22,748 nt of DNA from a virus. Where the stretch lies: positions 1 to 22,748 of IMG/VR virus record IMGVR_UViG_3300017786_000160; one strand, 5' to 3'. Position numbers and translations under genes: made by a program. The notes under the pieces are model-generated. The model did not search any database. It worked only from the letters and a program-made list of their open reading frames with translations, and had not been told where the DNA came from. Position 1 is the stretch's first letter. Every line of letters begins with the position of its first letter. Of the stretch, positions 2,719 through 22,748 are shown in pieces.

Positions 2719-3671
2719 GTCACTACGCAAGGCTTAATAGTAACGGTACTATTGGTTGCTGTGGACATATGGTTGATGCACAAGAATATACAACATTTAG
2801 GCAAATGGAAAACAGTGCCTGGCAGCAATGGCTAAAGTGGCAAATGGAACAACAAGGCAAGTGGCCCAAAGAATGTGTGCGTTGTAAACAAACAGAAGAA
2901 CTTAATGGCACAAGTATAAGGCTTAACAGTATTAAACGCGATAAAATATTGCGTAAGTTTGATGAAAAATACCTACAACTAGGCGGGACACTGGACAATT
3001 ATTGCAACAGTGCTTGCGTCACCTGCAGTCCTAACCTAAGCACTAAAATAGGCAATCTTAAGAAACAACTTGTAGTGAAAGATAACTACGAACTTTATAA
3101 AACACTACCATTAGATCGTGTAGTTGAAATAGACATCAATGGTGGAGAGCCAAGTATTAGCAAAAACTATGGTGATCTTTTAAGTAATCTACCTGCTAGT
3201 GTACGCATTGTGCGTATTAATACAAATGCGTGTGTAAGAATTAAACAAGTGAAGCAGTTGTTAGATAAGGACGTGGCAGTAATTGTTACAGTGAGTTTTG
3301 ATGGCATTGGTCCTGTGCATGATTATGTTAGGTATCCTGTGAAGTGGCAACAATTTGAAAATAACTTGTTATACTACAAGGAACTAGCAACACAGTATAA
3401 CAAGTTAACACTTGACACATGGACCACTGTAAGTTGTCTCAATATACAACAACTTGAGTTACTACAAAAATACTGTAAAAATGTGGGTATACGACATGAA
3501 TTTGCATTTTTAAGTAAGCCTGAACCTCTTAACGTAAAGTATACAAATTGGTTTACTAAAGAAGTTGACATGGATGGCGTGGCGACTCACAGGGATAACA
3601 CACAGGAACTAGAGGCTTTTCTTGGATTAGAAGAAGCATGTAGGAACGATATAGAAAGATTTTGGGTATGA
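2700..3671 (+). CDS. Radical SAM protein with N-terminal Twitch-like Cys cluster
   Basis: This 323-aa protein carries the radical SAM motif CNSACVTC (C102, C106, C109), which binds the 4Fe-4S cluster that cleaves S-adenosylmethionine, and a GGEP SAM-binding motif at 148-151. Before the core, residues 1-70 hold further cysteines (C3, C20, C21, C59, C62) in a context resembling SPASM/Twitch auxiliary-cluster domains, which usually sit at the C-terminus. The same layout recurs in the product of the gene at 4173, so the two are probably paralogues. Related phage proteins are often annotated as Twitch-domain radical SAM proteins of unknown substrate. The start overlaps the sulfotransferase-like gene, and the stop overlaps the SDR start as ATGA. 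Confidence 0.8.
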   Translation: MHCPRIGHYARLNSNGTIGCCGHMVDAQEYTTFRQMENSAWQQWLKWQMEQQGKWPKECVRCKQTEELNGTSIRLNSIKRDKILRKFDEKYLQLGGTLDNYCNSACVTCSPNLSTKIGNLKKQLVVKDNYELYKTLPLDRVVEIDINGGEPSISKNYGDLLSNLPASVRIVRINTNACVRIKQVKQLLDKDVAVIVTVSFDGIGPVHDYVRYPVKWQQFENNLLYYKELATQYNKLTLDTWTTVSCLNIQQLELLQKYCKNVGIRHEFAFLSKPEPLNVKYTNWFTKEVDMDGVATHRDNTQELEAFLGLEEACRNDIERFWV

Positions 3672-4183
3672 AAGTAGCAATTACTGGACATACTGCTGGC
3701 ATAGGACAAGCATTTGCAACTTGGTTTACAGATCAAGGACATGAAGTAGTGGGATTAAGCAGGCGCACAGGACGCAACATCAGAAGTATACCAAAGTGTA
3801 TGGGGGATATAGTAGACTGCGATATGTTTATAAACAATGCACAAGCAGGATTTGCGCAGACGGATTTGTTATATAAAGTATGGCATCAATGGCACAGTGA
3901 ACCTAAACTGATTTGGCTTATAGGAAGCATTATGAGTACACAGCATGCTACAGATTTTGAAATGCAGGAATATCAGTTACAAAAACAAACACTTGATCGT
4001 GCATACTATAATTTAAAAAATACACATAGCAAATGCAATCTTATGTTAATACGTCCTGGCAAAGTTGATACACAAAACGAAGGCGGTGCTAATGTTACTG
4101 TATGGGCAAACACTGTATGTGAGTATTGGAAAATTGCACAAGAAAGAAATTTAAGTTTGCAGGAAATTAGCCTTGGATCCTAA
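3668..4183 (+). CDS. Short-chain dehydrogenase/reductase (SDR)
   Basis: The ATG at 3668 forms an ATGA overlap with the preceding stop and gives a 171-aa protein; a TTG six bases earlier is possible but less likely. It has the Rossmann dinucleotide motif TGHTAGIG (6-13), an NNAQ motif (56-59) like the SDR NNAG, a Ser in GSIMS (86-90), and a Y102-QLQ-K106 catalytic pair. These are the standard SDR landmarks for NAD(P)-dependent oxidation or reduction of alcohols and ketones, including sugar intermediates. It is much shorter than classical SDRs of about 250 residues, with shortened middle and C-terminal parts. It lies between two radical SAM genes and overlaps both, suggesting joint translation. 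Confidence 0.8.
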   Translation: MKVAITGHTAGIGQAFATWFTDQGHEVVGLSRRTGRNIRSIPKCMGDIVDCDMFINNAQAGFAQTDLLYKVWHQWHSEPKLIWLIGSIMSTQHATDFEMQEYQLQKQTLDRAYYNLKNTHSKCNLMLIRPGKVDTQNEGGANVTVWANTVCEYWKIAQERNLSLQEISLGS

Positions 4184-5300
4184 ACGTGCAATAAACGGAA
4201 CGTTTTGTCCTATACCCTGGACTGGCTTTATAATGAATCCAGATGGTGAAATAAAAAATTGCGTAATAAGTGAACAAAAACTGGGTAATATAAATGATAC
4301 TGATATACAGGATATACTGGGAGGTCAAGCAAACACACAAGTAAAAACGTGTATGAATGCTGATAAACAACACACTGGATGTATAAACTGCTATAAAAAT
4401 GAACAAGGCACTGCAGGACTTAAAAACGTTCGCAGCGATAGATATTATTATTTAAAAGCACTAAGCGGCATACCCTATAGTGCATATGACACAATGGATA
4501 CTACACTGGGTACAGTAGATATGCGTTGGCGTAATACCTGTAATCTTGCATGTGTTTACTGCGGTCCAACATTAAGCAGTACATGGGCAAAAGAACTTGG
4601 TGTTGATATAGGTGTAAATGAAGAACAATTAGATAAAACAAAACAGTATGTGCTAGACAATGCACCAAACTTAAAAAATGTCTATCTGGCAGGTGGAGAA
4701 CCACTGTTAATGAAAGAGAACAGCGAATTACTGGATAGACTAGATCCAAGTTGTACAGTGCGTATTAACACTAATTTAAGCAATATTAAAGGCCCTGTGT
4801 TTAAACGTGCAAGCAAGTTTAAGGATGTACACTGGACAATCAGTGTTGAAACAATGGGTGCAGAGTTTGAATACATACGCTATGGTGCAGTTTGGGACAC
4901 CTTCTTAGAAAATTTAGAAGCAGTAAAGGATTTAGATCATAAGATAAGTTTTAACATGCTGTGGTTTATCCTTAATCCATACACAGTATTTGATACAGTA
5001 GATTACTTCAAAGCACTTGGATATAGCGAAAACAGTTTTGTAATAGGTGCTTTAACAAGTCCAAAAGCATTTGATGTAAGAAACTGTAATAGTAGAACAT
5101 TATTAGACTTACAAAATCATTTAAAAATGCGTATACAAGGCGCAAACAGAAACTATTTTTTACACAATAGTTATGTTAATATGCTTAAACACTTGGATGA
5201 AACGTTCGATAAACATAGTAGCAAACAACGTTTGAAAGAAATGGATACACGTCGTGGACAAAACTATAAAAATGTGTTTGACATAGACAAGTATCTGTAA
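4173..5300 (+). CDS. Radical SAM protein with N-terminal Twitch-like Cys cluster
   Basis: The start is taken as TTG at 4173, overlapping the SDR stop by 11 bases, because it keeps a conserved-looking N-terminus (FCPIPWTGFIMNPDGEIKNC, 11-30) and follows an AGGA ribosome-site match; the next ATG would remove that segment. The 375-aa protein has N-terminal cysteines C12, C30, C60, C70 and C73, then the radical SAM motif CNLACVYC (C123, C127, C130) and GGEPLL (174-179). It appears to be a paralogue of the 2700-3671 product. The N-terminal cluster probably binds an auxiliary iron-sulfur centre, and the substrate is unknown. Its last codons carry the -35 box of the next promoter. Confidence 0.82.
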   Translation: MDPKRAINGTFCPIPWTGFIMNPDGEIKNCVISEQKLGNINDTDIQDILGGQANTQVKTCMNADKQHTGCINCYKNEQGTAGLKNVRSDRYYYLKALSGIPYSAYDTMDTTLGTVDMRWRNTCNLACVYCGPTLSSTWAKELGVDIGVNEEQLDKTKQYVLDNAPNLKNVYLAGGEPLLMKENSELLDRLDPSCTVRINTNLSNIKGPVFKRASKFKDVHWTISVETMGAEFEYIRYGAVWDTFLENLEAVKDLDHKISFNMLWFILNPYTVFDTVDYFKALGYSENSFVIGALTSPKAFDVRNCNSRTLLDLQNHLKMRIQGANRNYFLHNSYVNMLKHLDETFDKHSSKQRLKEMDTRRGQNYKNVFDIDKYL

Positions 5301-8213: not shown

Positions 8214-9053
8214 TTAGAACTTAATAGCAATTCCCATTGCTGTTGTCTTTTCGCTAGAAGTCTTGTCATCAGCAGTATTTTCAATAAATGCTACTGCACC
8301 TGGAGCAAGTGTATACTGTGCGCCTAGTGTAATCTCATCACTTGAAACTGTGCCTGCTGATTCAGTTTTCATTGTTTCAACACCTACCATCATTGCACCA
8401 ACACTGTATGTTGCGCCCATTGTAGTTGTGTCTGTATCAACGTCTGCTGCAGTTGTTGCTGTATGCTTTTCAAAAGCAACACCGATTGCACCAACTTTTG
8501 CAGTTGCGTTCATTAGGAATTCTTCTGAATCATCAGCGTTTTTCATCTGACCTGCACCAAGTGTTGCAATTTCACTGAGACCATAAACAGCACTGTAAGC
8601 ATAGCCTTCGCCTGCTGTTGTGCCATAGTCATTGCCAGTTGCATTACTAATGTTTACAGTAAGTCCACCAATTGGTGATAGACTTAAAATACTTGAATGA
8701 TCTGTGCTTGGTGAGCCATTGCCCAATACATATGTAAAGTCAGTGGTGTCGTCGATTGCATCAAGCGCACTGTTTACGTCACCTAAATCAAGTGTCCATG
8801 TATCATTGCTAAGTGTAACACTATTACCGCCATCATCACTGCCGGTGTGATCCAAGTTAATGTCTGCACCGAAAGTCAAGCCTGTGTCTGTTGTAGTACT
8901 TGCTTTAAAATTAATATCACCATCCATTGCTGTTGATGCTGTTCCGTCGTTGTCCTGGTATGACCATTCCATGTCGCCGCCGATAGTTACATCAGCCATA
9001 ACAGGTGTTGTCAATACTGCTAATAGAGCAGTAGTTGCTAGTAGTCGTTTCAT
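8214..9053 (-). CDS. Outer-membrane porin-like protein
   Basis: The 279-aa product begins with a clear signal peptide (MKRLLATTALLAVLTTPVMA, cut after residue 20), followed by DVTIGGDMEW, typical of Gram-negative porin mature ends. The rest alternates polar and hydrophobic residues with Gly/Asp/Thr-rich turns, as in beta-barrel strands, and it ends in AMGIAIKF, whose final Phe is the usual sorting signal for BAM-dependent outer-membrane insertion. Families of this type form trimeric diffusion pores of 16 strands; at about 259 mature residues this one is on the short side. A ribosome site (AAGGA, complement of 9065-9069) lies 11 bases ahead of the ATG. It is opposite in direction to the replication genes and has its own promoter and terminator, like a phage moron. 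Possible roles are altered uptake, receptor masking or superinfection exclusion. Confidence 0.8.
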   Translation of the reverse strand: MKRLLATTALLAVLTTPVMADVTIGGDMEWSYQDNDGTASTAMDGDINFKASTTTDTGLTFGADINLDHTGSDDGGNSVTLSNDTWTLDLGDVNSALDAIDDTTDFTYVLGNGSPSTDHSSILSLSPIGGLTVNISNATGNDYGTTAGEGYAYSAVYGLSEIATLGAGQMKNADDSEEFLMNATAKVGAIGVAFEKHTATTAADVDTDTTTMGATYSVGAMMVGVETMKTESAGTVSSDEITLGAQYTLAPGAVAFIENTADDKTSSEKTTAMGIAIKF

Positions 9054-9260: not shown

Positions 9261-10088
9261 CTATAATTTTGCTCTAATACGATGCCACTGGACATGAATT
9301 TCATCTGCAAGCCATTCTGTATAGCACAAACGTTTTATCCAGATGTGTCTATAGGGTTTGCTTAACCATCCGCTCATGCTAGTTCCAACATCATATGCTA
9401 AACTATGTTCGCTTACAACACTGGGTACTCCAGCAATAACACTGTGTATGCCAGCGTTGCTACTATGGCTTATTGTAAACTTGGCATTCTCTAGCATTGC
9501 TGGCAAATCAAAATCATCATAGGTATTTGCTAGTTGTGCTGGCGTGTTCCAAGTTACACCTTCAAACTGTACAGTTTCTTTACAGCGAGGATGACTCCTA
9601 ATAATAATGGGCAAGTCAGTATGTTCACGTATTTCATCTACAGTCTGACGATAGTAGGTATCTATGTCGGGCATGTTACGCCACTGTTCACTTGCAGTGT
9701 GTTGACCACATATTAGTACATACTCACCATCCTGCTTCCAAGGTTGTAGTACAATGCCAAACTTTTTTAATCTATCCTCAGGCATGTAATTGTCTAATGC
9801 AAAGTCTGCATCTCTGTTGATCCCGTTTATACCCAACTTCCAAGTTGTGTTGCGTATAAGCCCGCCCACTTCTATGACAATGACTGGCTTGTTCTGTGCG
9901 CGATAGTGATCCCATACAGTTTTATTTGGACGCATTTTACCTTGCCATAGCACACTCCATATCAATGCTGCATCAGCATCCATAGTATTTTCTACAAGTG
10001 TATCTGTTTTCTGTATTGCGTCTACTAGTTGTGGATAAACTAAATTTGCATTGCCAGGAAGATTGTTAGGAAAGTGAGATATTTTCAT
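9261..10088 (-). CDS. GT-B-like glycosyltransferase family protein (paralogue 1)
   Basis: The 275-aa protein shares a layout with the products at 16132, 19553 and 20319. A middle segment (PEDRLKKFGIVLQPW, 103-117) leads to a strand motif YVLICG (123-128), then a DEIREHTDLPIIIRSHPR helix-strand segment (151-168), and a NAKFTISHSSNAGIHSVIAGVPSVV-type stretch (201-225). The C-terminal end has TEWLADEI. The IIIR-HP segment and the later Ser/Asn-rich loop before AGVP recall the nucleotide-sugar-binding half of GT-B enzymes such as capsule or Kdo transferases. No donor or acceptor can be assigned. It is the only member on the minus strand and lies just upstream of the porin-like gene. The ribosome site is weak. 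Confidence 0.5.
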   Translation of the reverse strand: MKISHFPNNLPGNANLVYPQLVDAIQKTDTLVENTMDADAALIWSVLWQGKMRPNKTVWDHYRAQNKPVIVIEVGGLIRNTTWKLGINGINRDADFALDNYMPEDRLKKFGIVLQPWKQDGEYVLICGQHTASEQWRNMPDIDTYYRQTVDEIREHTDLPIIIRSHPRCKETVQFEGVTWNTPAQLANTYDDFDLPAMLENAKFTISHSSNAGIHSVIAGVPSVVSEHSLAYDVGTSMSGWLSKPYRHIWIKRLCYTEWLADEIHVQWHRIRAKL

Positions 10089-10116: not shown

Positions 10117-11007
10117 ATGCGTACATTATCAGTATTTAGTACCTGGCATCCCTCAGGTTATGAAAAATATGGCAGAGATTTTGTCAAGGGATTTATTCAG
10201 AACTGGCCCAGTGAGATTAACCTAAGCATCTATGCTGAAGGACACGTTCCTGATACACAAGGCGATAGCCGCATTTGTGTATATGACCAACATGAAACAT
10301 TGCCAGACTTAAAGGCTTGGCAACATAGACACAAAGACAATAAGCATGCACATGGATGGAATAAAGACCTGACCAAAAAAAGTTTTTTATGGGATGCAAG
10401 TCGTTTTGCAAACAAAGTATTTGCACTTTGGCACTTTGCTAATAACTGCAATACCGATATTTTTATTTGGTGTGACGGAGATGTTAGAACACACACGCCT
10501 ATGTCACATGACTTTCTACAAAGTATTGCGCCAAATGAAAATCAACTAGCAACTTATTTAGGAAGAAAAACTTGGCCCGAATGTGGCTGGATGATGTTTA
10601 ATCGTAACCATCCAAAGTTTGCTGAGTTTTTAGAACAGTGGCGTTGGATTTACGAAAGCGATGATATTTTTAATCATATAGAGTCACATGATAGTTTTAT
10701 TTTTGGTGAACTAGTGGAGGACTTTCGTGCAGTAGGCGTAGAGTTTAATGACCTAGGTGGACCTGATCAAGGCGGTCATATTTTTATTAATAGTGTACTA
10801 GGACAGTATATGGATCACCTTAAAGGCTTTCGCAAAGAAGTAGGAAAAAGTTTGCAAAGTGATGTAGTAAGAGGCGAACATTTTAGCACAAATGAATGGT
10901 GGAGTGATCTAAGACAAGTGACTAAACAACAAATACAAGCAGAAAAATTAAAGAATCCGCACGAATATGATGCAACACAGGAAGTAAAAAGTAAGGGGAT
11001 AAAATGA
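10117..11007 (+). CDS. GT-A-like glycosyltransferase
   Basis: The 296-aa protein appears to be a nucleotide-diphospho-sugar transferase. FIWCDGDVRTHTP (116-128) provides a D120-G-D122 motif in the usual DxD context at the end of a strand, which binds metal and nucleotide sugar. ECGWMMFNRNHPKFAEFLEQW (155-175) resembles the acceptor-side segment of such enzymes, in which a residue-rich loop precedes a helix, and SHD (190-192) may be a later acidic site. It opens the plus-strand cassette with no clear Shine-Dalgarno and overlaps the next gene by 4 bases (ATGA). It lacks a signal peptide or membrane span, so it should act in the cytoplasm. Confidence 0.6.
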   Translation: MRTLSVFSTWHPSGYEKYGRDFVKGFIQNWPSEINLSIYAEGHVPDTQGDSRICVYDQHETLPDLKAWQHRHKDNKHAHGWNKDLTKKSFLWDASRFANKVFALWHFANNCNTDIFIWCDGDVRTHTPMSHDFLQSIAPNENQLATYLGRKTWPECGWMMFNRNHPKFAEFLEQWRWIYESDDIFNHIESHDSFIFGELVEDFRAVGVEFNDLGGPDQGGHIFINSVLGQYMDHLKGFRKEVGKSLQSDVVRGEHFSTNEWWSDLRQVTKQQIQAEKLKNPHEYDATQEVKSKGIK

Positions 11008-11780
11008 GCGAACTAAGTGTAATACAAAATGTAACAAAAGTAGAAACAGATCCATATCCTTATGTTTGTGTTGAAGGAGCATTACCAGATCGTTTTTACA
11101 AAGAGCTACAGGATACATTTCCTGAGCAACTAATAACAAGTACAAGCCCACACGACGGAGGCATTTGTTATAGATATAAAATGAAAGAGTGTGCAGAAAT
11201 AGAACAACCACCTGCAATATGGCAAGACTTCTTTGCATATCATACAAGTCCTGAATACTTCCGTGCTTGCGCAGAACTATTTGCTACAAGTATTGTAGAT
11301 CATTATAGTGAAGACTTTTATGAAAGTTTAAAGACACAGAGCGTAACACCGCGTGATGTTGATAACAGTGGGCATTATGTAGCAGATTGTCAGTTTGTTG
11401 TACATGAACCAGTAGATCAAACAGGCACAAGTCGCACACCGCATGTAGATAACCCTGTTGAAATATATGCTGGACTATTATACATGAGACAGGAAGGCGA
11501 TACTGCACAAGGTGGTAATTTTACTGTACATCGTGTGCATGGGCAAATTACAGAAGTAAACAAAAGTTTAGGCAGACAAGTAGATAATAGTTTACATAAG
11601 CCACACTTTGAAGTACCCTATATGGCAAATAACTTTTGTATGTTTTTAAACGTAAAGGACAGTGTACATGGCGTAACACCTCGTATAGAGCCCACAATGC
11701 GTAGACGTAGCATTAACATTATTGGTGAGTTTAACGGCAATGGTAAGATGTGGAAAGTAAAAGAAATTAAGAACAAGTGA
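11004..11780 (+). CDS. 2-oxoglutarate/Fe(II)-dependent oxygenase-like protein
   Basis: The 258-aa protein has the iron triad of this superfamily: H147 and D149 in RTPHVDN, and H222 in DSVHGVTPR. An Arg that could bind 2-oxoglutarate follows (R227 or the R233-R235 group). A YAGLLYM strand and a GGNF turn lie between, as in prolyl-hydroxylase-like folds. Such enzymes couple decarboxylation of 2-oxoglutarate to hydroxylation of proteins, sugars or small molecules. AAGGGG at 10993-10998 is the ribosome site, and the start overlaps the GT-A-like stop as ATGA. A second, smaller member of this superfamily is encoded at 18026. The substrate is unknown. Confidence 0.78.
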   Translation: MSELSVIQNVTKVETDPYPYVCVEGALPDRFYKELQDTFPEQLITSTSPHDGGICYRYKMKECAEIEQPPAIWQDFFAYHTSPEYFRACAELFATSIVDHYSEDFYESLKTQSVTPRDVDNSGHYVADCQFVVHEPVDQTGTSRTPHVDNPVEIYAGLLYMRQEGDTAQGGNFTVHRVHGQITEVNKSLGRQVDNSLHKPHFEVPYMANNFCMFLNVKDSVHGVTPRIEPTMRRRSINIIGEFNGNGKMWKVKEIKNK

Positions 11781-12991
11781 AATACAGTATAGGAAAGGCA
11801 AGCGGAGTTTTTATAGGTGAAGATACAGTTGTAAAAATATTTAATCTTAGAAACAAGCCTGTAAAAGCAGCAAGAGGCAGTTACGAATTGTGTTGGGCAA
11901 GAGAACGTGAATGTTTAAAAAGACTAGGCAACAGCAATCATTTTCCTAAACTAATAGCAAGTCATGAAGATCATTTAGGATTACAAATGACCCAATGTGG
12001 AGAAAGTTTATTTCATACTTGGCAAGAACACAATTTAATGTTATACTTAGATCAAGTACATGCAATTGCGGATGCACTTGAGGCAGCGAATATACAATAT
12101 TTTTTTCCAGGTATGGATCCACTTGCTAATTCAAAAAAGTATGCAAAGTTTCCACTTAGTAACTTTTGTATAGAAGATGGACATTTAAGTTTAATAGACT
12201 TTGAACTTGCTAATCCTGTTGGAAGTAATAGTGAAAAGTATATGAGTGATCGTTTGAGATACTTGTATGACAATTACAACGCTAAAGGCTTTAGACAGTC
12301 ATTAGTGGAAACATTAAAAAATCCAAGGATAAGTTACGAATCAGAACTTATGGCAAAACTAACTGATAAAAGTAAGTTTGACGAAATGCGGGTACAAAAT
12401 CCAAGAGAGGTATACAAAACTATGACATCATTTACACAGCCCAGTGAAAAAATTGTAAACGAATGGAAAAAATATCAGAAACGCTATGGAATGGACCAGG
12501 CTGTAGATCGTGTTGCAAATATGAAACTAGCAAACGTTTGTACAGGCAAAACTGTTGTAGATATTGGATGCAATGATGGTTATATTACAGGATTAGTAAG
12601 TAAATTTGCTACAAGCGCAACTGGCGTAGAACCACATGTCGAACTAAGTGAAGATAAGCCTGCAAACGTTAATTGGATCCGTACCACATTTAATAATTTT
12701 TTAGAAAGTAAGCCTGGTACGTTTGATGTACTACTAAGTTTAGCAGTAAGTATACAGTTACGCGATTTTGGAGGATTGACAGAACAAGAAATTGTTAATG
12801 GTTATTACAGTTTATTACCAGTGGGCGGTATTGTAGTTCACGAAACACAGAAATTACAAGATCGTCCAAATAATCAAAATCATACAAATGCAATGATTGC
12901 TGCTTTTAAAACTAAGTTTGTGCAAGTAGATCATGGAGATGCTAGAGGCAGTGGCAAACGAGAATATTACCATTTCCTTAAGGAGGCATAA
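11777..12991 (+). CDS. Kinase-like and SAM methyltransferase fusion
   Basis: The GTG start at 11777 overlaps the preceding stop (GTGA). The 404-aa protein has two domains. Residues 1-180 resemble a small protein/sugar kinase fold: a VVKIF strand with K20, Glu residues in the next helix (E42, E45), and PLSNFCI with N129 ahead of LIDFE with D141 in the DFG position. The catalytic Asp expected five residues before N129 is K124, so phosphotransfer is doubtful unless D114 serves. Residues 255-400 form a class I methyltransferase with VVDIGCNDG (260-268), an acidic-type GVEP loop (283-286) and a DVLLSLAVS motif IV. Kinase plus methyltransferase is the composition of WbdD, which caps O-antigen chains, although there the methyltransferase comes first. 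A chain-capping role is inference. Confidence 0.68.
   Translation: MKYSIGKASGVFIGEDTVVKIFNLRNKPVKAARGSYELCWARERECLKRLGNSNHFPKLIASHEDHLGLQMTQCGESLFHTWQEHNLMLYLDQVHAIADALEAANIQYFFPGMDPLANSKKYAKFPLSNFCIEDGHLSLIDFELANPVGSNSEKYMSDRLRYLYDNYNAKGFRQSLVETLKNPRISYESELMAKLTDKSKFDEMRVQNPREVYKTMTSFTQPSEKIVNEWKKYQKRYGMDQAVDRVANMKLANVCTGKTVVDIGCNDGYITGLVSKFATSATGVEPHVELSEDKPANVNWIRTTFNNFLESKPGTFDVLLSLAVSIQLRDFGGLTEQEIVNGYYSLLPVGGIVVHETQKLQDRPNNQNHTNAMIAAFKTKFVQVDHGDARGSGKREYYHFLKEA
12981..12986 (+). promoter_or_regulatory. Strong ribosome binding site
   Basis: AGGAGG, an exact anti-16S match, lies 5 bases before the ATG at 12992 and inside the last codons of the fusion gene. It is the strongest site in the cassette and suggests that the following methyltransferase-like protein is made at a higher rate than its neighbours. 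Confidence 0.75.
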
Positions 12992-13807
12992 ATGGCTTTT
13001 AATAACATTATGCAATTAGCAACTGCGCAACTTGTAAAGCAACGTGCATTTGCTGCTGGTGCAACAGTAGTTGAATGGGGCAATCAACGTTTTAGATACA
13101 GTGAGGATTGGTTAAATGAATGTGAAAAAACAAGCGGGCGAACACTGCGTAAACCAACACAGTTTGTATGGGAGTACTTTGAGGATCTGGGGTTTAGCGA
13201 TTACCTTGCTATTGATATTAACACTGAACTTAGGTCTATCGCTATGGATCTTAATTTCATCCTAAAAGACAAGTACAACTACACACAAGAGTTTGACTAT
13301 GTAACAAACAACGGCACAGGTGAACACATCTTTGACCAGCGCACAGTGTTTGAAAACATGCACAACTTGTGCAAAGTTGGTGGTACAATGATTAATGTGT
13401 TACCATTTGCACCCTGGTTTAATCACTGCTTCTATAGTTTTCATCCACAGTTGTTCCGTGATATTGCTGCAGCAAATGGATATACTTGGCGTTTTATGTG
13501 GTTAGCACAAAACACAGGTAAGTACGTTGAATGCCCTACGGACTTTGATAGTTGGAGTTACTATGAACAAAAGAAGCCTCGCAATCCTATTAGTGATTTG
13601 GAAAAAACTTTTGATACCCTACATAATCGTGAAGGCAAAACTCATAATGTTAGTATTGTTAGTGCGTACACTAAAATGTCTGATAAACCGTTTCAGATTC
13701 CGTTCCAAGGACGATATGTAAACGACATTGTAGATGATCTCAAAGGCGAATACAGTGAGACAAATGTAGATGTGAGACAAAAGGATCACACTAGTGCGAC
13801 TTATTAA
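12992..13807 (+). CDS. Methyltransferase-like protein
   Basis: The 271-aa protein looks like a class I SAM-dependent methyltransferase with a modified nucleotide site. VVEWGNQRF (26-34) stands where motif I would normally be a Gly-rich loop, YLAIDIN (71-77) matches the acidic strand that binds the SAM ribose, FDYVTNNGTGEH (101-112) fits motif IV, and the KVGGTMINVLP stretch (128-138) fits the helix-strand after it. FAPWFNHCFYSFHPQLF (139-155) is typical of this group after motif VI. Because motif I is degenerate, binding of SAM is likely but not certain. It overlaps the next gene by 14 bases. Confidence 0.6.
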   Translation: MAFNNIMQLATAQLVKQRAFAAGATVVEWGNQRFRYSEDWLNECEKTSGRTLRKPTQFVWEYFEDLGFSDYLAIDINTELRSIAMDLNFILKDKYNYTQEFDYVTNNGTGEHIFDQRTVFENMHNLCKVGGTMINVLPFAPWFNHCFYSFHPQLFRDIAAANGYTWRFMWLAQNTGKYVECPTDFDSWSYYEQKKPRNPISDLEKTFDTLHNREGKTHNVSIVSAYTKMSDKPFQIPFQGRYVNDIVDDLKGEYSETNVDVRQKDHTSATY

Positions 13808-14552
13808 TATTGGTTGTAGTTTTAGTTATGGCAACTGTATTGCAAAACACGAAGAATTTGCACAAGAACATGTAAGTCCAGGTACACTAATTGCACAACA
13901 TTTAAATTGTGAGGAAGTAAATATTGCCAGTCCGGGTCTAAGTCTTGACGGCTTGCTGCGCAGATTATATACATTTGAATTTGAAGAAAAGGATGTTTTC
14001 CTAATAGGACTCCCACCTAACCTTAGAGTACAATATGTTTGTAAATCGCCGCGCAATCAATATAAAATTCGTGGAGACTTGTCTGCAAGTGAATATAGAA
14101 ACGATGCGTTTAATCGTGGCCCAAAGATAGCAGAAGACTGGTTCAAAACAATGCGCTGGGACACGGATGTAAATATTGCTAAACTTGATCTGTTAGATAC
14201 AACTACTTACTGGAGTTACTTAAATATTCTGCTTATCCAACAAGCAATGAAAACTGTTATGAACGATAAACTGCCTGTTGGTAGGATTCTAAGTAAGAAA
14301 AGACGTTATTGGATGTACAACAGTGTGCATGGACATATGCAACAAGACACTGATAAGATTGAGATACAAGCATTGCGTAAACAAATCGACATGCGTTATT
14401 ATTATATGCCAGAAGTTGGACTAGCAGACCTCATAGACAACCAAAGTAAATACACTGTTGCCCGTGACGATACACACCCTAACCATGTATTTTATCATAA
14501 GTGGGCAAATGATTTTATTGCCTGGATGGAAACATGCGACCAAGACTACTAA
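13794..14552 (+). CDS. SGNH hydrolase-like protein
   Basis: The GTG start at 13794 overlaps the previous gene and keeps the first strand MRLINIGCSFSYG. The 252-aa protein has all four SGNH blocks: S9 in GCSFSYG (7-13), a SPGLS Gly block (46-50), N76 in IGLPPNLR (71-78), and D225 with H228 in DDTHPN. Unlike the 5326-6387 product it lacks the extra N-terminal region. These enzymes act as esterases or acyltransferases, often on O-acetylated sugars. In a cassette rich in glycosyl- and methyltransferases, adding or trimming acyl groups on a glycan is a reasonable guess. Confidence 0.72.
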   Translation: MRLINIGCSFSYGNCIAKHEEFAQEHVSPGTLIAQHLNCEEVNIASPGLSLDGLLRRLYTFEFEEKDVFLIGLPPNLRVQYVCKSPRNQYKIRGDLSASEYRNDAFNRGPKIAEDWFKTMRWDTDVNIAKLDLLDTTTYWSYLNILLIQQAMKTVMNDKLPVGRILSKKRRYWMYNSVHGHMQQDTDKIEIQALRKQIDMRYYYMPEVGLADLIDNQSKYTVARDDTHPNHVFYHKWANDFIAWMETCDQDY

Positions 14553-16135
14553 TTGTATATCCTAATTTGCCATTAATGATGAGCCCTGCAATGAGTGTTG
14601 CTATACTTAATGCTATTGGTAAACGTGAAGGATGTAAAGTAGAAGTTTTTGAGACAACACAGTATAGCAGTGAATTTAGCAATAAGCATATTAGACAAAG
14701 TGAAATGGGTGCAGTTCGTGCTAATAAAGATGACGAACTAAAAGATATGTTTTATGTTGCAGATCCTGATCGTATTATACCAGACTTTGTAGCACATGTT
14801 GAAAGTTTTAAACCTGATCTCATAATGATGAGTGTGCAAGAAGATGTGTACCGTATGGCATTAGAACTATTGGATAGTATTAAAGATAAAAATATACCTA
14901 ATATACTAGGCGGTGTACTTGTTATGAGTGATCCAGCACTTGTAATTAACAATCCACTAGTAGATCAAATATGTGTATACGAAGGAGAACGTGTTGCTGT
15001 AGATATGATAAACTGTATCAAAGCAGGAGAAACTACAAAGCATGTGCGTGGAACTTGGTATAGTGAGACAGATGGAATACACAAAAATTTAGCACAGCCA
15101 CTTGCAGATATTACTAAAGTAGTACCTGATTACACATGCTTTGAAGTAAAACGCTGGAACAGACCCATGGGCGGTCAGACATTTAATGCTGCAGTAAGCA
15201 TGGAGACATACAGAGGTTGTCCATACAACTGCACATATTGCAACAGTCCAAACACCCGTGACATAGCAAAGGTATACGAACTTGGCAATTTTATGCGTAG
15301 GAAAAGTGCTGACATTGTAGAGCGTGAACTAGCAGAATTTATCGAACTATATAATCCTGATCTAATAATGATACAGGATGATAGTTTTCTTGCCCGTCCT
15401 TCAAAAGAAATATTTGAATTTGCAGAAATGTGGGGCAAGTATAAGATACCATTTTGGATGAACACACGAATTGAAAACTGTAGATTAGAATACATGCAAG
15501 CACTAAAAGAAGCAGGTATGTATCGTGTTAGTTTAGGAATAGAAAGTGGTAACGCAGAGTACAGAGAAAACGTGCTAAAGCGTAAAGTAAAAAATGAAAA
15601 GTATGCAGAGTATTTAGGATATATTAACGAAAGCAATGTACCTTATGGATTAAATGTTATTGCAGGTATGCCCTATGAAACACGCGACATGGTATTAGAG
15701 ACTGCACAAATGGTACGAAATGCCAGAGGTTATGACAGTATCAACATAAGTATATTCCAGCCATACAGAGGGACTAAACTAAGACAAATAGCAGTAGACG
15801 CAGGCTTTATGGATGCAGATCATATAAATGGTTGGGAAAGCGGAGCAATAGGCGGTGGCTTTATGGATAGTTGGGCTCTTAAAATGCCTAAACCATATTT
15901 ACAACCTGAGGAACTAGCAGGACTTGTAAAGTGTTTTGCATTGTACAGTTACTTTGGCGATGAACGCTGGATAGAAATTGAAAGTGCAGAGACAGATGAC
16001 ACGCTTTACTTGCCCCTAATTGAAGAATACAAAGAACAATTCTTTGAGCCTATTCAACAAGGTGGTAATGAACGTATAGAAAAGTTTTGCGCAATGCATG
16101 ATCATACCAGCACATACCAATGGGAAGTAGCATGA
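14534..16135 (+). CDS. B12-binding-type radical SAM protein
   Basis: The 533-aa protein has a Rossmann-like N-terminal domain (LLIVYP at 5-10, then GGV at 126-128 and YEGE at 149-152) of the type that binds cobalamin in class B radical SAM methylases and BchE relatives. A radical SAM core follows with CPYNCTYC (C229, C233, C236) and a later LGIES segment typical of this group. The DxHxxG motif for base-off cobalamin is not seen at its expected place (MMSVQEDVYRMAL, 98-110), as in several relatives that bind without it. Possible reactions include methylation of unactivated carbons or ring chemistry. The start lies within the SGNH-like gene (19-base overlap). Confidence 0.78.
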   Translation: MRPRLLIVYPNLPLMMSPAMSVAILNAIGKREGCKVEVFETTQYSSEFSNKHIRQSEMGAVRANKDDELKDMFYVADPDRIIPDFVAHVESFKPDLIMMSVQEDVYRMALELLDSIKDKNIPNILGGVLVMSDPALVINNPLVDQICVYEGERVAVDMINCIKAGETTKHVRGTWYSETDGIHKNLAQPLADITKVVPDYTCFEVKRWNRPMGGQTFNAAVSMETYRGCPYNCTYCNSPNTRDIAKVYELGNFMRRKSADIVERELAEFIELYNPDLIMIQDDSFLARPSKEIFEFAEMWGKYKIPFWMNTRIENCRLEYMQALKEAGMYRVSLGIESGNAEYRENVLKRKVKNEKYAEYLGYINESNVPYGLNVIAGMPYETRDMVLETAQMVRNARGYDSINISIFQPYRGTKLRQIAVDAGFMDADHINGWESGAIGGGFMDSWALKMPKPYLQPEELAGLVKCFALYSYFGDERWIEIESAETDDTLYLPLIEEYKEQFFEPIQQGGNERIEKFCAMHDHTSTYQWEVA

Positions 16136-17061
16136 GAGTTGTAGCATTTAGACATCAGTACAACGGCAGTGGTCTTAGTGATATACAATTTACACATCCC
16201 GAATTAGAAATGGTGGATTGGATGGTAGAACCAAGACCACAAGCAGATCACTATATTCTAGTAAACATAGACTGTGAAAAGTTTAGAGAGGATCCAACAT
16301 ATAAATTTGTAATGAACAGTGGTAAGCCATATATGATTTTTGAAACTGCAGTGTTTAAACGTAATGCAAGAGCTGGAGATTGGAAAGACTGGCACTGGCG
16401 ACTAGGATGGTGGCACTTACTAGGCCCTGGTAAGTTTAATAATCACAACAGTCCTCCAGATAGGTGGAAAATGATAAAGCGCCAACAAGGTTTAGAGATA
16501 CATCCATGGCGTAGAGGGGGTAAACATATACTAATACCCCTACAAAAAAATAATGATAGCGTAACACAAACAATGATGGATCGTTATGGAAGTATGCGTG
16601 AGTGGTTAAACTACACTATAGATGAAATACGGAAAGTAACAGACAGACCTATTCTAATACGTCCTACAATTAAAACTGCCCTTTGGAGTTATTTAGAAGC
16701 AGCATTACGTCCAGATGTTTTTATAAGTGAAACATATAAAGATAATCCTAGTACAGATGGTACAAAGTTTACACGCAACATTGAGGGCGGACCTGGATTA
16801 ATTAACGAACTAAGAGATTCATGGGCAGTAGTAGGATACAATACTAGCACACTGTTTGAAAGTATAACTGATGGCATTCCTACAGTAAGCATGGATCCAG
16901 ATGCACTTACTGCTCCTATGAGTATACAGATAAAAGACATAGAAAACCCTCCACTAAATATAGACAGAACACAATGGCTATACGATATGTCATATATAAG
17001 TTGGACCATGGATGAGATACAAAGAGGCGTAGCCTGGGAGCATCTTCGAGGAAAGTATTAA
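16132..17061 (+). CDS. GT-B-like glycosyltransferase family protein (paralogue 2)
   Basis: The ATG at 16132 is chosen over one 12 bases earlier because it gives the ATGA coupling seen at other junctions. The 309-aa protein follows the same plan as the 9261-10088 product: PYMIFETAVF (66-75), PPDRW (108-112), GLEIHPWRRGGKHILIPLQ (120-138), TIDEIRKVTDRPILIRP (162-178), and a WAVVGYNTSTLFESITDGIPTV-like stretch (231-252). The C-terminal end (IENPPLNIDRTQWLYDMSYISWTMDEI) is shared with the 19553 product. It probably binds a nucleotide sugar, but the donor is unknown. The stop overlaps the next start (TAATG). Confidence 0.5.
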   Translation: MRVVAFRHQYNGSGLSDIQFTHPELEMVDWMVEPRPQADHYILVNIDCEKFREDPTYKFVMNSGKPYMIFETAVFKRNARAGDWKDWHWRLGWWHLLGPGKFNNHNSPPDRWKMIKRQQGLEIHPWRRGGKHILIPLQKNNDSVTQTMMDRYGSMREWLNYTIDEIRKVTDRPILIRPTIKTALWSYLEAALRPDVFISETYKDNPSTDGTKFTRNIEGGPGLINELRDSWAVVGYNTSTLFESITDGIPTVSMDPDALTAPMSIQIKDIENPPLNIDRTQWLYDMSYISWTMDEIQRGVAWEHLRGKY

Positions 17062-18026
17062 TGTTTGAAATCGACAGGGCAGTCATAGAAATTAATGGCG
17101 GATGTAACTATACATGTGCAATGTGCCCTCAAACTACACCTGAAGGAAAAACTGGCGCAAGAGGTAAATCATGGCTAAAGAAAATGCCATTGGATTTATT
17201 TGAGGAAGCAGTTAAACAGTGTGCCAGCGCAGGTGGTCTTAATGTAGTAAACTTGGAAGGCAGCGGCGAAGCAACGCTTAATGCTGACTTGCCACTGTAC
17301 ATTGAAATTGTAAAAAAGTATGGCGCAAAGGCTTATATATTCAGCAATGGATTTAAGATGCACAGCCAGTTTATGCGCGACTGTGTAGACGCTGGACTTG
17401 ACTTTTATAGATTTTCTATTATAGGATACAATAAAGAAAAATATCGTGAATGGATGAACAGTACAAACTTTGAAATTGTTGTTGATAATTTGCATAAAAT
17501 GCAGGAATATGTCCTAACATCAAATTCAAATACAGAAGTAGCAACATATCATTTAATACTAGACAATAATAACATAGACCATGAAGTAGCGCAGTATAGA
17601 AAAATAGTAGACAGTGCTGGTGTACACACTGAGATATGGAAAATGCACAACTGGAGTGGGGTATATAATCCAGACTATGACAGACAGGGTGCTAAAAAAA
17701 CTTGTGGTAGACCTTTTAGTCCAGACATTGTTATCCGTGCAGGCGGTTCAGACGGAAAGTTAGGTGCAGTACACCCTTGTTGTCAAGTATTAGGCAGAGA
17801 TGATGAAGCAGTGCTAGGGCATTTTAGTGAAATGACAGTTGAAGAAATAATGACTGGTGATCTATATGAAAAACTACGAGAGCAACATAGAACAGGCAAT
17901 TATCCTGACTTTTGTAAAGACTGCGACTTTCTTATTGACGATCCAGAAACACTAGTGTATACTAATAGCGGAAGAAGTGAGATGCATATGAATGGTACAA
18001 AATTTAGTCTCAATGATTACAGATAA
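17061..18026 (+). CDS. Radical SAM protein with C-terminal SPASM-like domain
   Basis: The 321-aa protein begins at once with a radical SAM motif CNYTCAMC (C15, C19, C22). LEGSGEATL (65-73) takes the place of GGEP. The C-terminal part has C215, C240, C241, C285 and C288 in a SPASM-type context (HPCC, then GHFSEMTVEEI, then FCKDC), which usually binds one or two auxiliary iron-sulfur clusters. Here the cluster domain is C-terminal, unlike the two proteins at 2700 and 4173. SPASM enzymes modify peptides, sugars (for example aminoglycoside dehydration or epimerisation) or cofactors. No peptide substrate is visible nearby, so a sugar or metabolite is more plausible. Confidence 0.82.
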   Translation: MFEIDRAVIEINGGCNYTCAMCPQTTPEGKTGARGKSWLKKMPLDLFEEAVKQCASAGGLNVVNLEGSGEATLNADLPLYIEIVKKYGAKAYIFSNGFKMHSQFMRDCVDAGLDFYRFSIIGYNKEKYREWMNSTNFEIVVDNLHKMQEYVLTSNSNTEVATYHLILDNNNIDHEVAQYRKIVDSAGVHTEIWKMHNWSGVYNPDYDRQGAKKTCGRPFSPDIVIRAGGSDGKLGAVHPCCQVLGRDDEAVLGHFSEMTVEEIMTGDLYEKLREQHRTGNYPDFCKDCDFLIDDPETLVYTNSGRSEMHMNGTKFSLNDYR

Positions 18027-18534: not shown

Positions 18535-19593
18535 ATGCCTAAAATTTTATCATGGGATACATTGAATAAACCGCCCAATGGACCTGCATTTATTATAGGC
18601 GGAAGTCCTAGTGTTCTTGATGAGCCTCTACATTTACTATCTGGACATCGCGTTTATTTGTGTAATAAGTCTTGGAAAGCACTTGAAATGGGATTGCTTG
18701 AAAAGGCAAACGGATTATGTTACACTGGTTTAAGCAGTTATGAAGAGCATATAGATGAAATGAATCAGTATGGTCTTGCTAATATCCGTAAATTTTATAG
18801 TGATCTAATAGTAACTGGTGTTAAGCGTAGCACTTTTAAAGTTAAAGGAGATCCAAAAGAAGAAGTATTTGTTTTTCCAAAACGTGTTGCACAAAAAGAC
18901 GGTAGTAAAAATTTAAAGAATAATTTGTATTTGCCAAGTAGAATAGAAGATGGCATAGGTAAAACTGGCAGCGTGACACTGGACATGGCAGTGATATGTT
19001 ATCTAATGGGATTCAGAAACATATACTTATTAGGCATGGATTTAGATTATACTGCCGCACAGTACTACTTTTTTGAAGGTAATAGTTGGGATAGAAAAGT
19101 AAGCGAACCCACACTGCGTTTAGGTATCCACACTTGTATGTGTAATTTAGCAAAAGCAATGGGTGCAAAAGGCGTAAGTTTAAAAAATATAAGTTTAGGG
19201 TATAATCCAGAACTTTATGCAGAGCACACAGATCTTACAATTAATACAGATACTCTTCAAAATGTACTAGGCGGTTACATAAAACCAAAATCAATTGGCG
19301 TTATACATGGTGACTTTTATCCTTTGAATTATCATGACACTGATCAAATTGGTAATGCCCGCAAAAAATGTGACAAATTAATTGTAAGTTGCGCAAAGGA
19401 ATCCATGGTGCGTGTCATGGAACATGTCAGATTTGTTGATGGTGCAATATATTCTGCTACTGAACAACAAGCAGTAGATAACATTACTACACAATACCCT
19501 AAGGATAATATTAGACTATTTCACAGAGACGGAACTTTTACAGTATTTAAATATGGCGATGCTACACAGAAATCAAAACAATACAGACAGTAA
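18535..19593 (+). CDS. MptE/DUF115-like protein with nucleotidyltransferase-like tail
   Basis: Residues about 15-220 of the 352-aa protein resemble the MptE-like/DUF115 group. PAFIIGGSPSVLDE (17-30) is a phosphate-binding-like loop after a strand, TGSVTLDMAV (144-153) a helix start, and NIYLLGMDLDY (162-172) a strand with acidic residues. Members include archaeal 6-hydroxymethylpterin pyrophosphokinase and proteins linked to flagellin glycosylation with nonulosonic acids. Residues 252-345 recall a cytidylyltransferase domain: IGVIHGDFYPLNYH (254-267), then NARKKCDKLIVSC (274-286), then VRFVDG. The HxGH catalytic motif is not intact, so that part may be inactive. TAAGGA at 18524-18529 is the ribosome site. 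Confidence 0.6.
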   Translation: MPKILSWDTLNKPPNGPAFIIGGSPSVLDEPLHLLSGHRVYLCNKSWKALEMGLLEKANGLCYTGLSSYEEHIDEMNQYGLANIRKFYSDLIVTGVKRSTFKVKGDPKEEVFVFPKRVAQKDGSKNLKNNLYLPSRIEDGIGKTGSVTLDMAVICYLMGFRNIYLLGMDLDYTAAQYYFFEGNSWDRKVSEPTLRLGIHTCMCNLAKAMGAKGVSLKNISLGYNPELYAEHTDLTINTDTLQNVLGGYIKPKSIGVIHGDFYPLNYHDTDQIGNARKKCDKLIVSCAKESMVRVMEHVRFVDGAIYSATEQQAVDNITTQYPKDNIRLFHRDGTFTVFKYGDATQKSKQYRQ

Positions 19594-20326: not shown

Positions 20327-21245
20327 AATTATTGTATACGATACTGGTAGACGTATGACTACAAAATTTACACTAGCATTTGCTAAGGGTATTGTAGAAC
20401 ATAACAATAGAACAGGCGGTTCTTGGGAAGTAAAGCACCGCAGTATAGACAATTATTTACAAGACGGAATTCCGCGCGATTATCGTGCAGGACATGATGC
20501 AGTTGCAACACTGGGTATACTTCGCGGCACAGGTCTGCTCCTTAAAGAGGCTCAGCAGCGCGGTTTTGATTACTACTACATGGATCATGCATATTTTAAT
20601 CCTGGTTATAGTGGAAAAGGCTGGATGCGTGTTACAAAAAATGATCATGCTTGTACATCAATACGAGAAACTACAAAGGATCGCTGGAACGGTTTTCATA
20701 AGCATCATGGTTATGCCACTAATTCCTGGCGTACAAATGCTGAAAGAGGTGGACTAATACTTATATGCCCTCCCACTCCTGCTATATGTTGGTACTATGA
20801 TCTAGATCTTGACTGGGGCGAACGTATAGCACAGCATTTAAAAGATAAAATGCCTGCTAGTGAACATCATAGGATAAAAATAAGACATAAGCCCAAAGAG
20901 CCCGTTGTTGATTCCCAGGGTAATTTAATTGAGTTGCGTGAATTTGCACAACAGGGAGATTTAAAAGAAGATCTTGCCAATGCGCATTGTGTTATTGCGT
21001 GGAATAGTATGGTAGCACTGGAAGCAACACTAGCAGGTATACCTGTTATTACAGGGCCACACAGTGCTTGTGTAAGAGTAAGTTTTGACATTAGTTTATT
21101 GGAGAAGCACCCTGTACCAGAGGAGTTTAATACTGAACCTCTTAATAGGAGTGCAATGTTATATTGGTTAGCAAATAACCAGTGGAAAATGAAAGAAATA
21201 GAAGATGGCACAGCATGGCGTATGCTACAGGAGAACTACAGTTGA
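20319..21245 (+). CDS. GT-B-like glycosyltransferase family protein (paralogue 4)
   Basis: The 308-aa protein is the longest of the adjacent pair. It has an N-terminal domain of about 140 residues (with YYYMDHAYF at 85-93 and RVTKNDHACTS at 104-114), then LILICPP (146-152), HRIKIRHKPK (184-193), and AHCVIAWNSMVALEA (222-236) followed by TLAGIPV. The C-terminal NNQWKMKEIEDGTAWRML motif matches the ends of the other family members. It overlaps the preceding gene by 8 bases and shares 4 bases (TTGA) with the next. The closest known fold guess is a GT-B enzyme acting on cell-surface polysaccharide. Confidence 0.52.
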   Translation: MPKIIVYDTGRRMTTKFTLAFAKGIVEHNNRTGGSWEVKHRSIDNYLQDGIPRDYRAGHDAVATLGILRGTGLLLKEAQQRGFDYYYMDHAYFNPGYSGKGWMRVTKNDHACTSIRETTKDRWNGFHKHHGYATNSWRTNAERGGLILICPPTPAICWYYDLDLDWGERIAQHLKDKMPASEHHRIKIRHKPKEPVVDSQGNLIELREFAQQGDLKEDLANAHCVIAWNSMVALEATLAGIPVITGPHSACVRVSFDISLLEKHPVPEEFNTEPLNRSAMLYWLANNQWKMKEIEDGTAWRMLQENYS

Positions 21246-22264
21246 GTGAAGAATTAGTAGAGATAGGATATAACTCTGTAGAAGAAATACCTGGCTTTGT
21301 ACAAAGACGACATGAACTTGGTCACATAGAAGAGTATATTAGTAATTACTTGGATACACCTAGTTATTGTTTGCAGATAATGGAAACAGGCGTTGCTGGC
21401 AAAGTTGCACGAGACGTAGACACTGGGGAACTGATAGGCGCATATGGCTGGAAGTGTGTCAAACATTTAGGAAAAGGCAAAGACGGTTTTACATTCTGGG
21501 GACACAAGTATGGAGATAATCCTAATGATCTACATATTGTAAAAGTTTTGACTGGATATGGAGAAAATTATCATAACCACACTGAGATATTCAATGCATT
21601 TATGAGAAAACTGTTTCATGCAAAAATGCATCGAAACACCATGTTAAGGGATTTTGCTTGTAAAGCAACACACACAACTTATAAATGTAAAAAACCTTAT
21701 ACAAATTTTCAACCTAAGGACATGCGTGAATTATACAGAGCACTAAGACAAGTTTGTACCATGAACAATTGGTGTATAATACATACTGGATTTGTATTTT
21801 GGGATCTCGGATATGGCAATGGTAGAAATTTTATGGTAGATCCCACAGATGGTAACAACTTGAAGTGGATAGACTATGGTGGTGCTGGCATGGTACGATG
21901 TCCTAGTTTTAGAGACTTGTATAAACAAGAAAAAGATATGCCTGAACTTACACTTAAAAATTCATGGCAACAACCACTTAAAGGCAAAGAAAATTTAGTT
22001 GAAGGCAACAGTGACTTTGTAATGTTACAGTTCCTACTTAACTATGAATTTCATACAAACCCAACAAGCACTGCAGATGTATGGGCGAGTATGCTACAAG
22101 TACGCAAAGATATTGTGCCAGAAATGAAAATAATGCTTCCGCATTATTTTCGCAGTAGGTTTGCAAATGAGGTTTTTGAACGATTTAATGATTTGGACTG
22201 GCTTGAAGCGTCAACATGGAAGCAACTTGGCAAGTATATAGAATCAGATTGGCAAAACAAGTAA
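21242..22264 (+). CDS. Kinase-like protein with intact catalytic loop
   Basis: The TTG start at 21242 is preferred: it forms a TTGA overlap with the previous stop and has AGGAG (21229-21233) 8 bases ahead. An in-frame GTG 60 bases earlier would put the first 20 codons inside the neighbour. The 340-aa protein has a Gly-rich loop HLGKGKDGF (75-83), a likely ATP-binding Lys (IVKVL, K101), a catalytic loop HTGFVFWDLGYGN (181-193) with D188 and N193 in the spacing of HRDxxxxN, and WIDYGGAG (209-216) in place of DFG. This suggests an active kinase for sugars, lipids or proteins, in contrast to the 11777 fusion. The stop overlaps the next start (TAATG). Confidence 0.6.
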   Translation: MSEELVEIGYNSVEEIPGFVQRRHELGHIEEYISNYLDTPSYCLQIMETGVAGKVARDVDTGELIGAYGWKCVKHLGKGKDGFTFWGHKYGDNPNDLHIVKVLTGYGENYHNHTEIFNAFMRKLFHAKMHRNTMLRDFACKATHTTYKCKKPYTNFQPKDMRELYRALRQVCTMNNWCIIHTGFVFWDLGYGNGRNFMVDPTDGNNLKWIDYGGAGMVRCPSFRDLYKQEKDMPELTLKNSWQQPLKGKENLVEGNSDFVMLQFLLNYEFHTNPTSTADVWASMLQVRKDIVPEMKIMLPHYFRSRFANEVFERFNDLDWLEASTWKQLGKYIESDWQNK

Positions 22265-22748
22265 TGCAAGTATTAGAACGAGCAGACATCGAAAGTATTA
22301 TATTTGGCGGACATGACAGTGGTGTTACACAAGTGCGCGGTTATCAAAACTATGATATAAGTGATTTGGAAGTACAAGCGATAGCGAATCCTACAGCAAA
22401 ACGCCCCTGGGTAGATACAAGTGTAAAAAGTGCAGACTTTGAGCGTGTGTTTTTTCAGGTATCGCCTAAGAGTTATGCAGACTTTGGTAGCAATTTAGGA
22501 TACTATGTCTTTAAATGTGCGCAGGAGTTTGACATACACGCCACTGGTGTAGATTATAACTTTGAATATATCAGTGTATGTCAAGGTATAAAAGCACGGC
22601 ACACTGCCAGCCTTGCAGAATTTAAGTATACAAATCTTGAACAGTGGCACAATGCAAGTGATTATTATGATTTTATGACAGTGTTTAATGTTATACATCA
22701 CTTGTATAATCGTACAGAAAAATACATGGACATGAACCGTTTAATAAA
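22264..22748 (+). CDS. SAM methyltransferase-like protein, 3' end outside window
   Basis: The gene starts at an ATG sharing one base with the previous stop and stays open to the window end (161 codons). SPKSYADFGSNLGYYVF matches motif I of class I methyltransferases (Asp, Gly, then Asn-Leu-Gly), ATGVDYN the acidic ribose-binding strand, and YDFMTVFNVIHHLY motif IV, a form common in small-molecule and sugar methyltransferases. It is the third methyltransferase of the cassette. The C-terminal part and the exact family cannot be seen. Confidence 0.68.
   Translation, partial: MQVLERADIESIIFGGHDSGVTQVRGYQNYDISDLEVQAIANPTAKRPWVDTSVKSADFERVFFQVSPKSYADFGSNLGYYVFKCAQEFDIHATGVDYNFEYISVCQGIKARHTASLAEFKYTNLEQWHNASDYYDFMTVFNVIHHLYNRTEKYMDMNRLI

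What the first reader, a model, noticed from the sequence alone, without database searches (positions are those of the whole stretch)
11777..12991. Kinase-methyltransferase fusion resembling a chain terminator
A kinase-like N-terminus fused to a class I methyltransferase recalls WbdD, which ends O-antigen growth by phosphorylation and methylation, but with reversed domain order. The expected catalytic Asp is Lys (K124), so the kinase half may be a pseudokinase or a binding module. A phage-encoded chain terminator could set the length of a phage-directed glycan.
Basis: partly seen in the sequence, partly recalled or inferred. Interest (0 to 1): 0.6.

Follow-up and report, generated by a model that had tools for sequence, protein, structure and literature searches.

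The report
Phage kinase-methyltransferase with swappable kinase half
A marine phage gene really does join a kinase-fold domain to a methyltransferase, most likely to put a methylated phosphate on a surface sugar chain, and related phages exchange the kinase half between otherwise near-identical genomes.

Summary
The gene is real: 404 aa, GTG start at 11777, 31 distinct relatives in marine phage contigs, under purifying selection. Residues 1-222 fold as a protein-kinase-like domain (AF2 pLDDT 85, pTM 0.85; all 50 listed PDB neighbours are kinases). Residues 223-404 are a class I SAM methyltransferase. So kinase-then-methyltransferase, the reverse of WbdD, is confirmed. K124 does sit where the HRD Asp is expected, but 'pseudokinase' is not the best reading: the ATP/Mg residues K20, E43, N129 and D141 are invariant. 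In 26 distinct loop sequences an Asp occurs either at 114 (21, including the window) or at the canonical site (5), never both or neither. The kinase half is exchanged as a module: window versus L004 is 49% identical in the kinase half, 89% in the methyltransferase half and 94-97% in the genes on each side. Three loci carry the halves as two adjoining genes. The same phages carry a second, separate kinase-like/methyltransferase pair and sugar-related genes. Best explanation: phosphorylation then methylation of a phage-directed glycan, as WbdD does chemically. No support for chain-length control: no coiled-coil ruler, no ABC exporter in the contigs searched. Substrate and activity are untested.

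The parts
11777..12991 (+). Kinase-methyltransferase fusion (KMT), 404 aa
   Evidence: ORF; 31 distinct relatives with the same order or as an adjoining pair
11777..12442 (+). Kinase-fold half, residues 1-222
   Evidence: AF2 alone pLDDT 85, pTM 0.85; VIA Z 12.2 Rio2, 11.6 Ark1, all 50 rows kinases; Foldseek Ark1 2e-6
11834..11836 (+). Lys20, beta-3 (VAIK-like) lysine, invariant in 31/31
11903..11905 (+). Glu43, alpha-C glutamate, invariant in 31/31
12092..12163 (+). Catalytic-loop region, residues 106-129: Asp114, variable insert, Lys124, F-P-L-S-Asn129
   Evidence: Asp at 114 or at N129 minus 5, mutually exclusive in 26 distinct loop sequences
12197..12205 (+). Asp141-Phe-Glu, DFG equivalent
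   Evidence: invariant Asp in all relatives that reach it
12443..12988 (+). Class I SAM methyltransferase half, residues 223-404
   Evidence: PF13489; VIA Z 12.5-14.0 to class I enzymes incl. CgnL, NodS, RebM, MePCE; profile hits UbiG 1e-4, MePCE 2e-3
12560..12580 (+). SAM-binding motif DIGCNDG, residues 262-268
   Evidence: invariant in the 14-sequence alignment A2; one Ile-to-Val change in the wider alignment A5
11004..11780 (+). 2OG-Fe(II) oxygenase-like gene, directly upstream of KMT
   Evidence: PF13640 weak; synteny
10117..11007 (+). Putative GT-A glycosyltransferase (invariant D-x-D), conserved upstream
   Evidence: conservation; homologue in pelagiphage Mosig; no Pfam/PDB family match
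9261..10088 (-). Conserved neighbour, possible GT-B-like protein (paralogues at 16120, 19553, 20319)
   Evidence: synteny; only weak Glyco_transf_4 hits
12992..13807 (+). Methyltransferase-like protein, the most conserved neighbour (median 84.5% to the window)
21182..22264 (+). Second kinase-like protein: G-x-G-K-D-G loop, VK, D208-x4-N213, D231-Y-G
   Evidence: alignment of four relatives; no Pfam match, fold not predicted
22216..22746 (+). Methyltransferase overlapping the second kinase-like gene (cut by the window end)
   Evidence: PF13649/PF08241; pair also in L004 and apparent in L056 and L057 by order and length

Best explanation
KMT is a two-domain tailoring enzyme of a large marine T4-like phage. 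The N-terminal kinase-fold half binds ATP-Mg and phosphorylates a hydroxyl of the acceptor. The C-terminal class I methyltransferase then uses SAM to methylate the same site, most likely the new phosphate, giving a methylphosphate as WbdD does. The acceptor is most likely a glycan, probably a host surface polysaccharide remodelled during infection. In window-type enzymes the catalytic Asp has probably moved from the canonical place (K124) to Asp114 at the other end of the same inserted loop. The kinase half is exchanged between phages, so it probably sets the acceptor. Shown: both folds, invariant ATP/Mg residues, reciprocal Asp, purifying selection, module exchange, natural fission, sugar-enzyme neighbours in relatives. 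Inferred: kinase activity, order of steps, phosphate as methyl acceptor, glycan target.
For: Kinase fold. K20, E43, N129 and D141 invariant. Asp at 114 or at N129 minus 5, never both or neither, in 26 loops. dN/dS << 1. Methyltransferase fold near NodS, RebM, CgnL and the phosphate methyltransferase MePCE; MePCE second by profile after UbiG, 2e-3 versus 1e-4. WbdD's methyltransferase is closest to NodS and RebM, and the K. pneumoniae O7 methylphosphate terminator's to CgnL (PMC11231755). Relatives carry GT61, NTP_transferase, CTP_transferase fused to mannose-phosphate isomerase, and FkbM genes near KMT. Two-gene versions L042, L089 and L090 and the separate second pair suggest that kinase plus methyltransferase is the functional unit. 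Module exchange.
Against: No activity data. K124 instead of Asp could mean a dead kinase. The similarities to MePCE, NodS and CgnL are low (14-21% identity) and tied with many other class I methyltransferases. The nearest neighbours are only weakly assignable to glycosyltransferase families. Radical-SAM and 2OG oxygenase genes nearby would also fit a peptide or other small-molecule product. No model coordinates were available to check that Asp114 can reach the gamma-phosphate.
Confidence: 0.45

Rival explanations
1. The window-type kinase half is a true pseudokinase that binds ATP or substrate and positions the acceptor, and the methyltransferase half alone modifies it, for example by O-methylating a sugar hydroxyl. 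The Asp-bearing types remain active kinases.
For: K, V or I at the catalytic Asp site in 21 of 26 distinct loops. E. coli O8 WbdD methylates a sugar hydroxyl without any kinase domain (PMC3482155).
Against: Asp114 is invariant in exactly the members that lack the canonical Asp and is Asn in those that have it. K20, E43, N129, D141 invariant. A pure binding module would not need all of them.
Confidence: 0.25
2. KMT acts on something other than a glycan: a peptide or small-molecule product of the radical-SAM/2OG cluster, or an RNA end.
For: Radical-SAM/SPASM, B12-radical-SAM and 2OG oxygenase genes surround it. The top Foldseek match of the kinase half is the RNA kinase Ark1, and the methyltransferase half resembles MePCE, which caps RNA phosphates.
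Against: Sugar-nucleotide and glycosyltransferase genes accompany it in relatives. Ark1 ties with many other kinases and UbiG outranks MePCE.
Confidence: 0.2
3. KMT is a WbdD-type chain terminator that sets glycan length and licenses export.
For: Same two catalytic modules; glycan-related genes in relatives.
Against: Reversed domain order, no coiled-coil ruler, no ABC2-type permease in eight phage records, no polymerase identified.
Confidence: 0.08

Closest known systems
WbdD of Escherichia coli O9a (PMC3482155)
   Same: One polypeptide with a eukaryotic-like kinase fold and a class I methyltransferase; D-x4-N spacing matches the Asp-bearing members of this family and N-to-DFG spacing is within one residue; its methyltransferase is closest to NodS/RebM, which also rank among the matches here
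   Different: Methyltransferase first then kinase, plus a C-terminal coiled-coil region (460-708); canonical catalytic Asp351; part of an ABC-transporter O-antigen pathway; no WbdD entry among the listed PDB sequence hits
Klebsiella pneumoniae O7 terminator ORF6 N-terminal region (PMC11231755)
   Same: Bifunctional methyltransferase and divergent kinase making a methylphosphate end; its methyltransferase is closest to CgnL, a top-ranked match here too
   Different: Methyltransferase first; kinase resembles AmiN; CBM, coiled-coil and glycosyltransferase modules attached
Ark1 RNA kinase / RIO and Bud32 kinases
   Same: Best compact fold matches of the kinase half
   Different: 14-21% identity; not joined to a methyltransferase of this kind
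MePCE/Bin3 phosphate methyltransferases
   Same: Co-linear weak profile match over the SAM motif and the LSL/E-x-Q region
   Different: Eukaryotic RNA capping enzymes; similarity tied with other class I methyltransferases
Phage-borne LPS/O-chain gene clusters in pelagimyophages and jumbo cyanophages (PMC7029224, PMC7824862)
   Same: Large marine T4-like phages with glycosyltransferase and sugar-nucleotide genes thought to alter the host surface
   Different: No kinase-methyltransferase fusion in the passages read; no match in the 50,697 phage records searched

Membership tests
WbdD-type methylphosphate chain terminator | Kinase fold domain plus class I methyltransferase in one chain | tested here: met
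WbdD-type methylphosphate chain terminator | Domain order methyltransferase then kinase | tested here: not met
   Kinase 1-222, methyltransferase 223-404
WbdD-type methylphosphate chain terminator | C-terminal coiled-coil region for length control and polymerase recruitment | tested here: not met
   Protein ends at residue 404, the end of the methyltransferase
WbdD-type methylphosphate chain terminator | Catalytic Asp five residues before the loop Asn | tested here: not met
   K124 in the window; Asp in 5 of 26 distinct related loops
WbdD-type methylphosphate chain terminator | ABC-transporter export genes with the cluster | tested here: inconclusive
   No PF01061 in eight phage records, several of them fragments; host could supply it
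WbdD-type methylphosphate chain terminator | Basic residues H132/H133/R203 and Y16 around the methyl group | not testable with these tools
   No WbdD sequence or model coordinates to superpose
Protein-kinase-like fold | Bilobal kinase fold with beta-3 Lys, alpha-C Glu, loop Asn and DFG Asp | tested here: met
Protein-kinase-like fold | Catalytic HRD Asp at the canonical position | tested here: not met
   K124; possible replacement by D114
Class I SAM methyltransferase | Rossmann-like fold and glycine-rich motif I | tested here: met
   VIA Z up to 14.0; DIGCNDG motif
MePCE/Bin3 family | Match to the Bin3 profile | tested here: inconclusive
   One of 16 members, E 0.07; PDB profile 2e-3

The most novel reading that the evidence does not exclude
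Marine jumbo-like phages carry a modular methylphosphate-capping enzyme in which the catalytic Asp has moved within the catalytic loop in most lineages, and they swap the kinase half by recombination to change which surface glycan is capped, much as specificity domains are swapped in restriction systems.
Probability: 0.25. Interest if true: 0.75.

Novelty: new variant of a known kind. Interest (0 to 1): 0.52.

Why it matters
It would be a phage-encoded counterpart of bacterial methylphosphate enzymes, with the opposite domain order. The split between Asp114 and Asp at the canonical site gives a natural, testable case of a catalytic residue changing place in a kinase loop. The exchange of one domain between otherwise near-identical phages points to that domain as the one under changing selection, which makes the question of what these large marine phages do to the host surface directly testable.

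Tried and rejected
Chance or decayed ORF: rejected by conservation and dN/dS. Bacterial origin by close homologues: the genome-contig scan gave one methyltransferase-only hit (L019) and no fusion. Known isolates: no tblastn match in 50,697 phage records. Identity of the neighbouring putative glycosyltransferases by profile against PDB and Pfam: no significant match. ABC2 export permease: none found. WbdD does not appear in the listed fold or sequence matches; this is not evidence against relatedness. L005/L011: flanks nearly identical, kinase half differs, but the kinase tree does not reject their grouping (p 0.30), and a mis-assembly cannot be excluded for that pair, so it is not relied on. 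The TumE Pfam hit (E 0.004-0.013, one member) was judged chance. A literature search for methylphosphate plus phage plus kinase plus methyltransferase plus polysaccharide returned nothing.

Full report
Observation. The ORF 11777-12991 encodes 404 aa. It begins with GTG overlapping the stop of the upstream gene, and relatives start at the same place. The window is a 22.7 kb virus record that also encodes gp32- and UvsX-like proteins (gp32 named from its sequence and position). The UvsX is nearest to large phages of Sinorhizobium, Agrobacterium and Vibrio (64-68% identity). Longer relatives carry a phage terminase in all seven records tested.

Relatives. Scans of viral contigs with the whole protein, the kinase half and the methyltransferase half gave more than 30 contigs, the longest 203 kb. 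Thirty-one distinct rows were aligned, the window included and two of them partial. No relative is in 50,697 named phage records. One scan of bacterial genomes gave only a methyltransferase hit. The gene sits in a conserved block: putative GT (minus strand), GT-A-like gene, 2OG oxygenase, KMT, an optional radical-SAM gene, a conserved methyltransferase-like gene, then further putative GT genes.

Domains. The kinase half alone gave an AF2 model with pLDDT 85 and pTM 0.85. Its fold matches are kinases throughout: Rio2 Z 12.2 (rmsd 3.3, 149 aligned), Ark1 Z 11.6 (rmsd 2.7, 135 aligned); Foldseek puts Ark1 first at 2e-6. The other half matches class I methyltransferases, Z up to 14.0 (rmsd 3.2, 151 aligned), with CgnL, NodS, RebM and MePCE among near-tied rows. 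By profile the nearest PDB sequences are UbiG (1e-4) and MePCE (2e-3).

The catalytic Asp. Lys20, Glu43 and Asn129 are invariant in 31 of 31, and Asp141 in all that reach it. Lys124 is five residues before Asn129, the D351/N356 spacing of WbdD (PMC3482155). A motif scan of all loci gave 26 distinct loop sequences: 21 have Asp114 with K, V or I at the canonical site, and 5 (L004, L017, L022, L090, L093) have Asn114 with Asp at the canonical site. None has both and none has neither. Positions 114 and 124 flank a variable insert, so they may be close in space; that is inference, as no coordinates were available. The split may be a single evolutionary change, so the counts are not independent. The kinase half is under purifying selection (dN/dS 0.02-0.23 in ten pairs), so it is not decaying.

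Module exchange. Window and L004 are 49% identical in the kinase half and 89% in the methyltransferase half, with the genes on each side at 94% and 97%. DNA identity falls from about 85% to 48-67% over most of 11760-12420, apart from one 60-base bin at 83%, and rises again at 12420. In the kinase tree L004, L017 and L022 form one clade; in the methyltransferase tree they fall in three places. AU tests reject the alternative groupings (p 2e-59 for the methyltransferase data, 3e-37 and 5e-57 for the kinase data); the groups were chosen after seeing the trees. In three loci the halves are separate adjoining genes: L042, L089 and L090.

Context. Near KMT, relatives carry GT61 (2e-8), a HAD-NTP_transferase fusion, a CTP_transferase-mannose-phosphate isomerase fusion and an FkbM methyltransferase. 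A second kinase-like gene (21182-22264) keeps a glycine loop, Lys, D208-x4-N213 and D-Y-G, and is followed by an overlapping methyltransferase gene; the kinase-like protein recurs in other phages, next to a similar-sized ORF in L056 and L057. No ABC2-type permease was found in eight records. Published work proposes that glycosyltransferases of large SAR11 phages alter the host O-chain (PMC7029224).

Reading. The chemistry most consistent with these parts is phosphorylation followed by methylation, as in WbdD and the K. pneumoniae O7 terminator (PMC11231755). The order of domains is reversed and the length-control parts are absent, so it is not filed as a WbdD family member. Whether the window-type kinase is active, whether the methyl group goes onto the phosphate, and whether the acceptor is a glycan are all untested.

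Noticed in passing
window 21182-22746: Second kinase-like gene with D-x4-N and D-Y-G motifs overlapping a methyltransferase gene; relatives of the kinase-like protein in six viral contigs, no Pfam match.
   Followed up: partly
window 8214-9053 (-): A Gram-negative porin (Porin_4, E 3e-21) encoded in the phage between UvsX and the sugar-related block; also in L002, L003, L004, L015, L016, in the last two on the other strand.
   Followed up: partly
window 2700-3671, 4173-5300, 14534-16135, 17061-18026: Four radical-SAM-type ORFs by sequence; Pfam run only on the last two (one B12-binding, one SPASM). Radical-SAM-like genes also lie between KMT and the next gene in several relatives (L007, L010, L012, L015, L042).
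   Followed up: no
window 18535-19593: MptE-like (PF01973, E 2e-5, below cut-off) protein; this family includes Maf-type flagellin glycosyltransferases (own knowledge).
   Followed up: no
window 12992-13807: Methyltransferase-like protein that is the most conserved gene of the block (67-97% in relatives) with no phage-record homologue.
   Followed up: partly
L059 1597-3818 (-): ORFs that look like tripartite tricarboxylate transporter TctA and TctC in a 131 kb phage contig; judged by eye only, no family search run.
   Followed up: no
L056 11306-13443: Two unusual fusions in a phage contig: HAD phosphatase-NTP_transferase and CTP_transferase-mannose-6-phosphate isomerase C-terminal domain.
   Followed up: no
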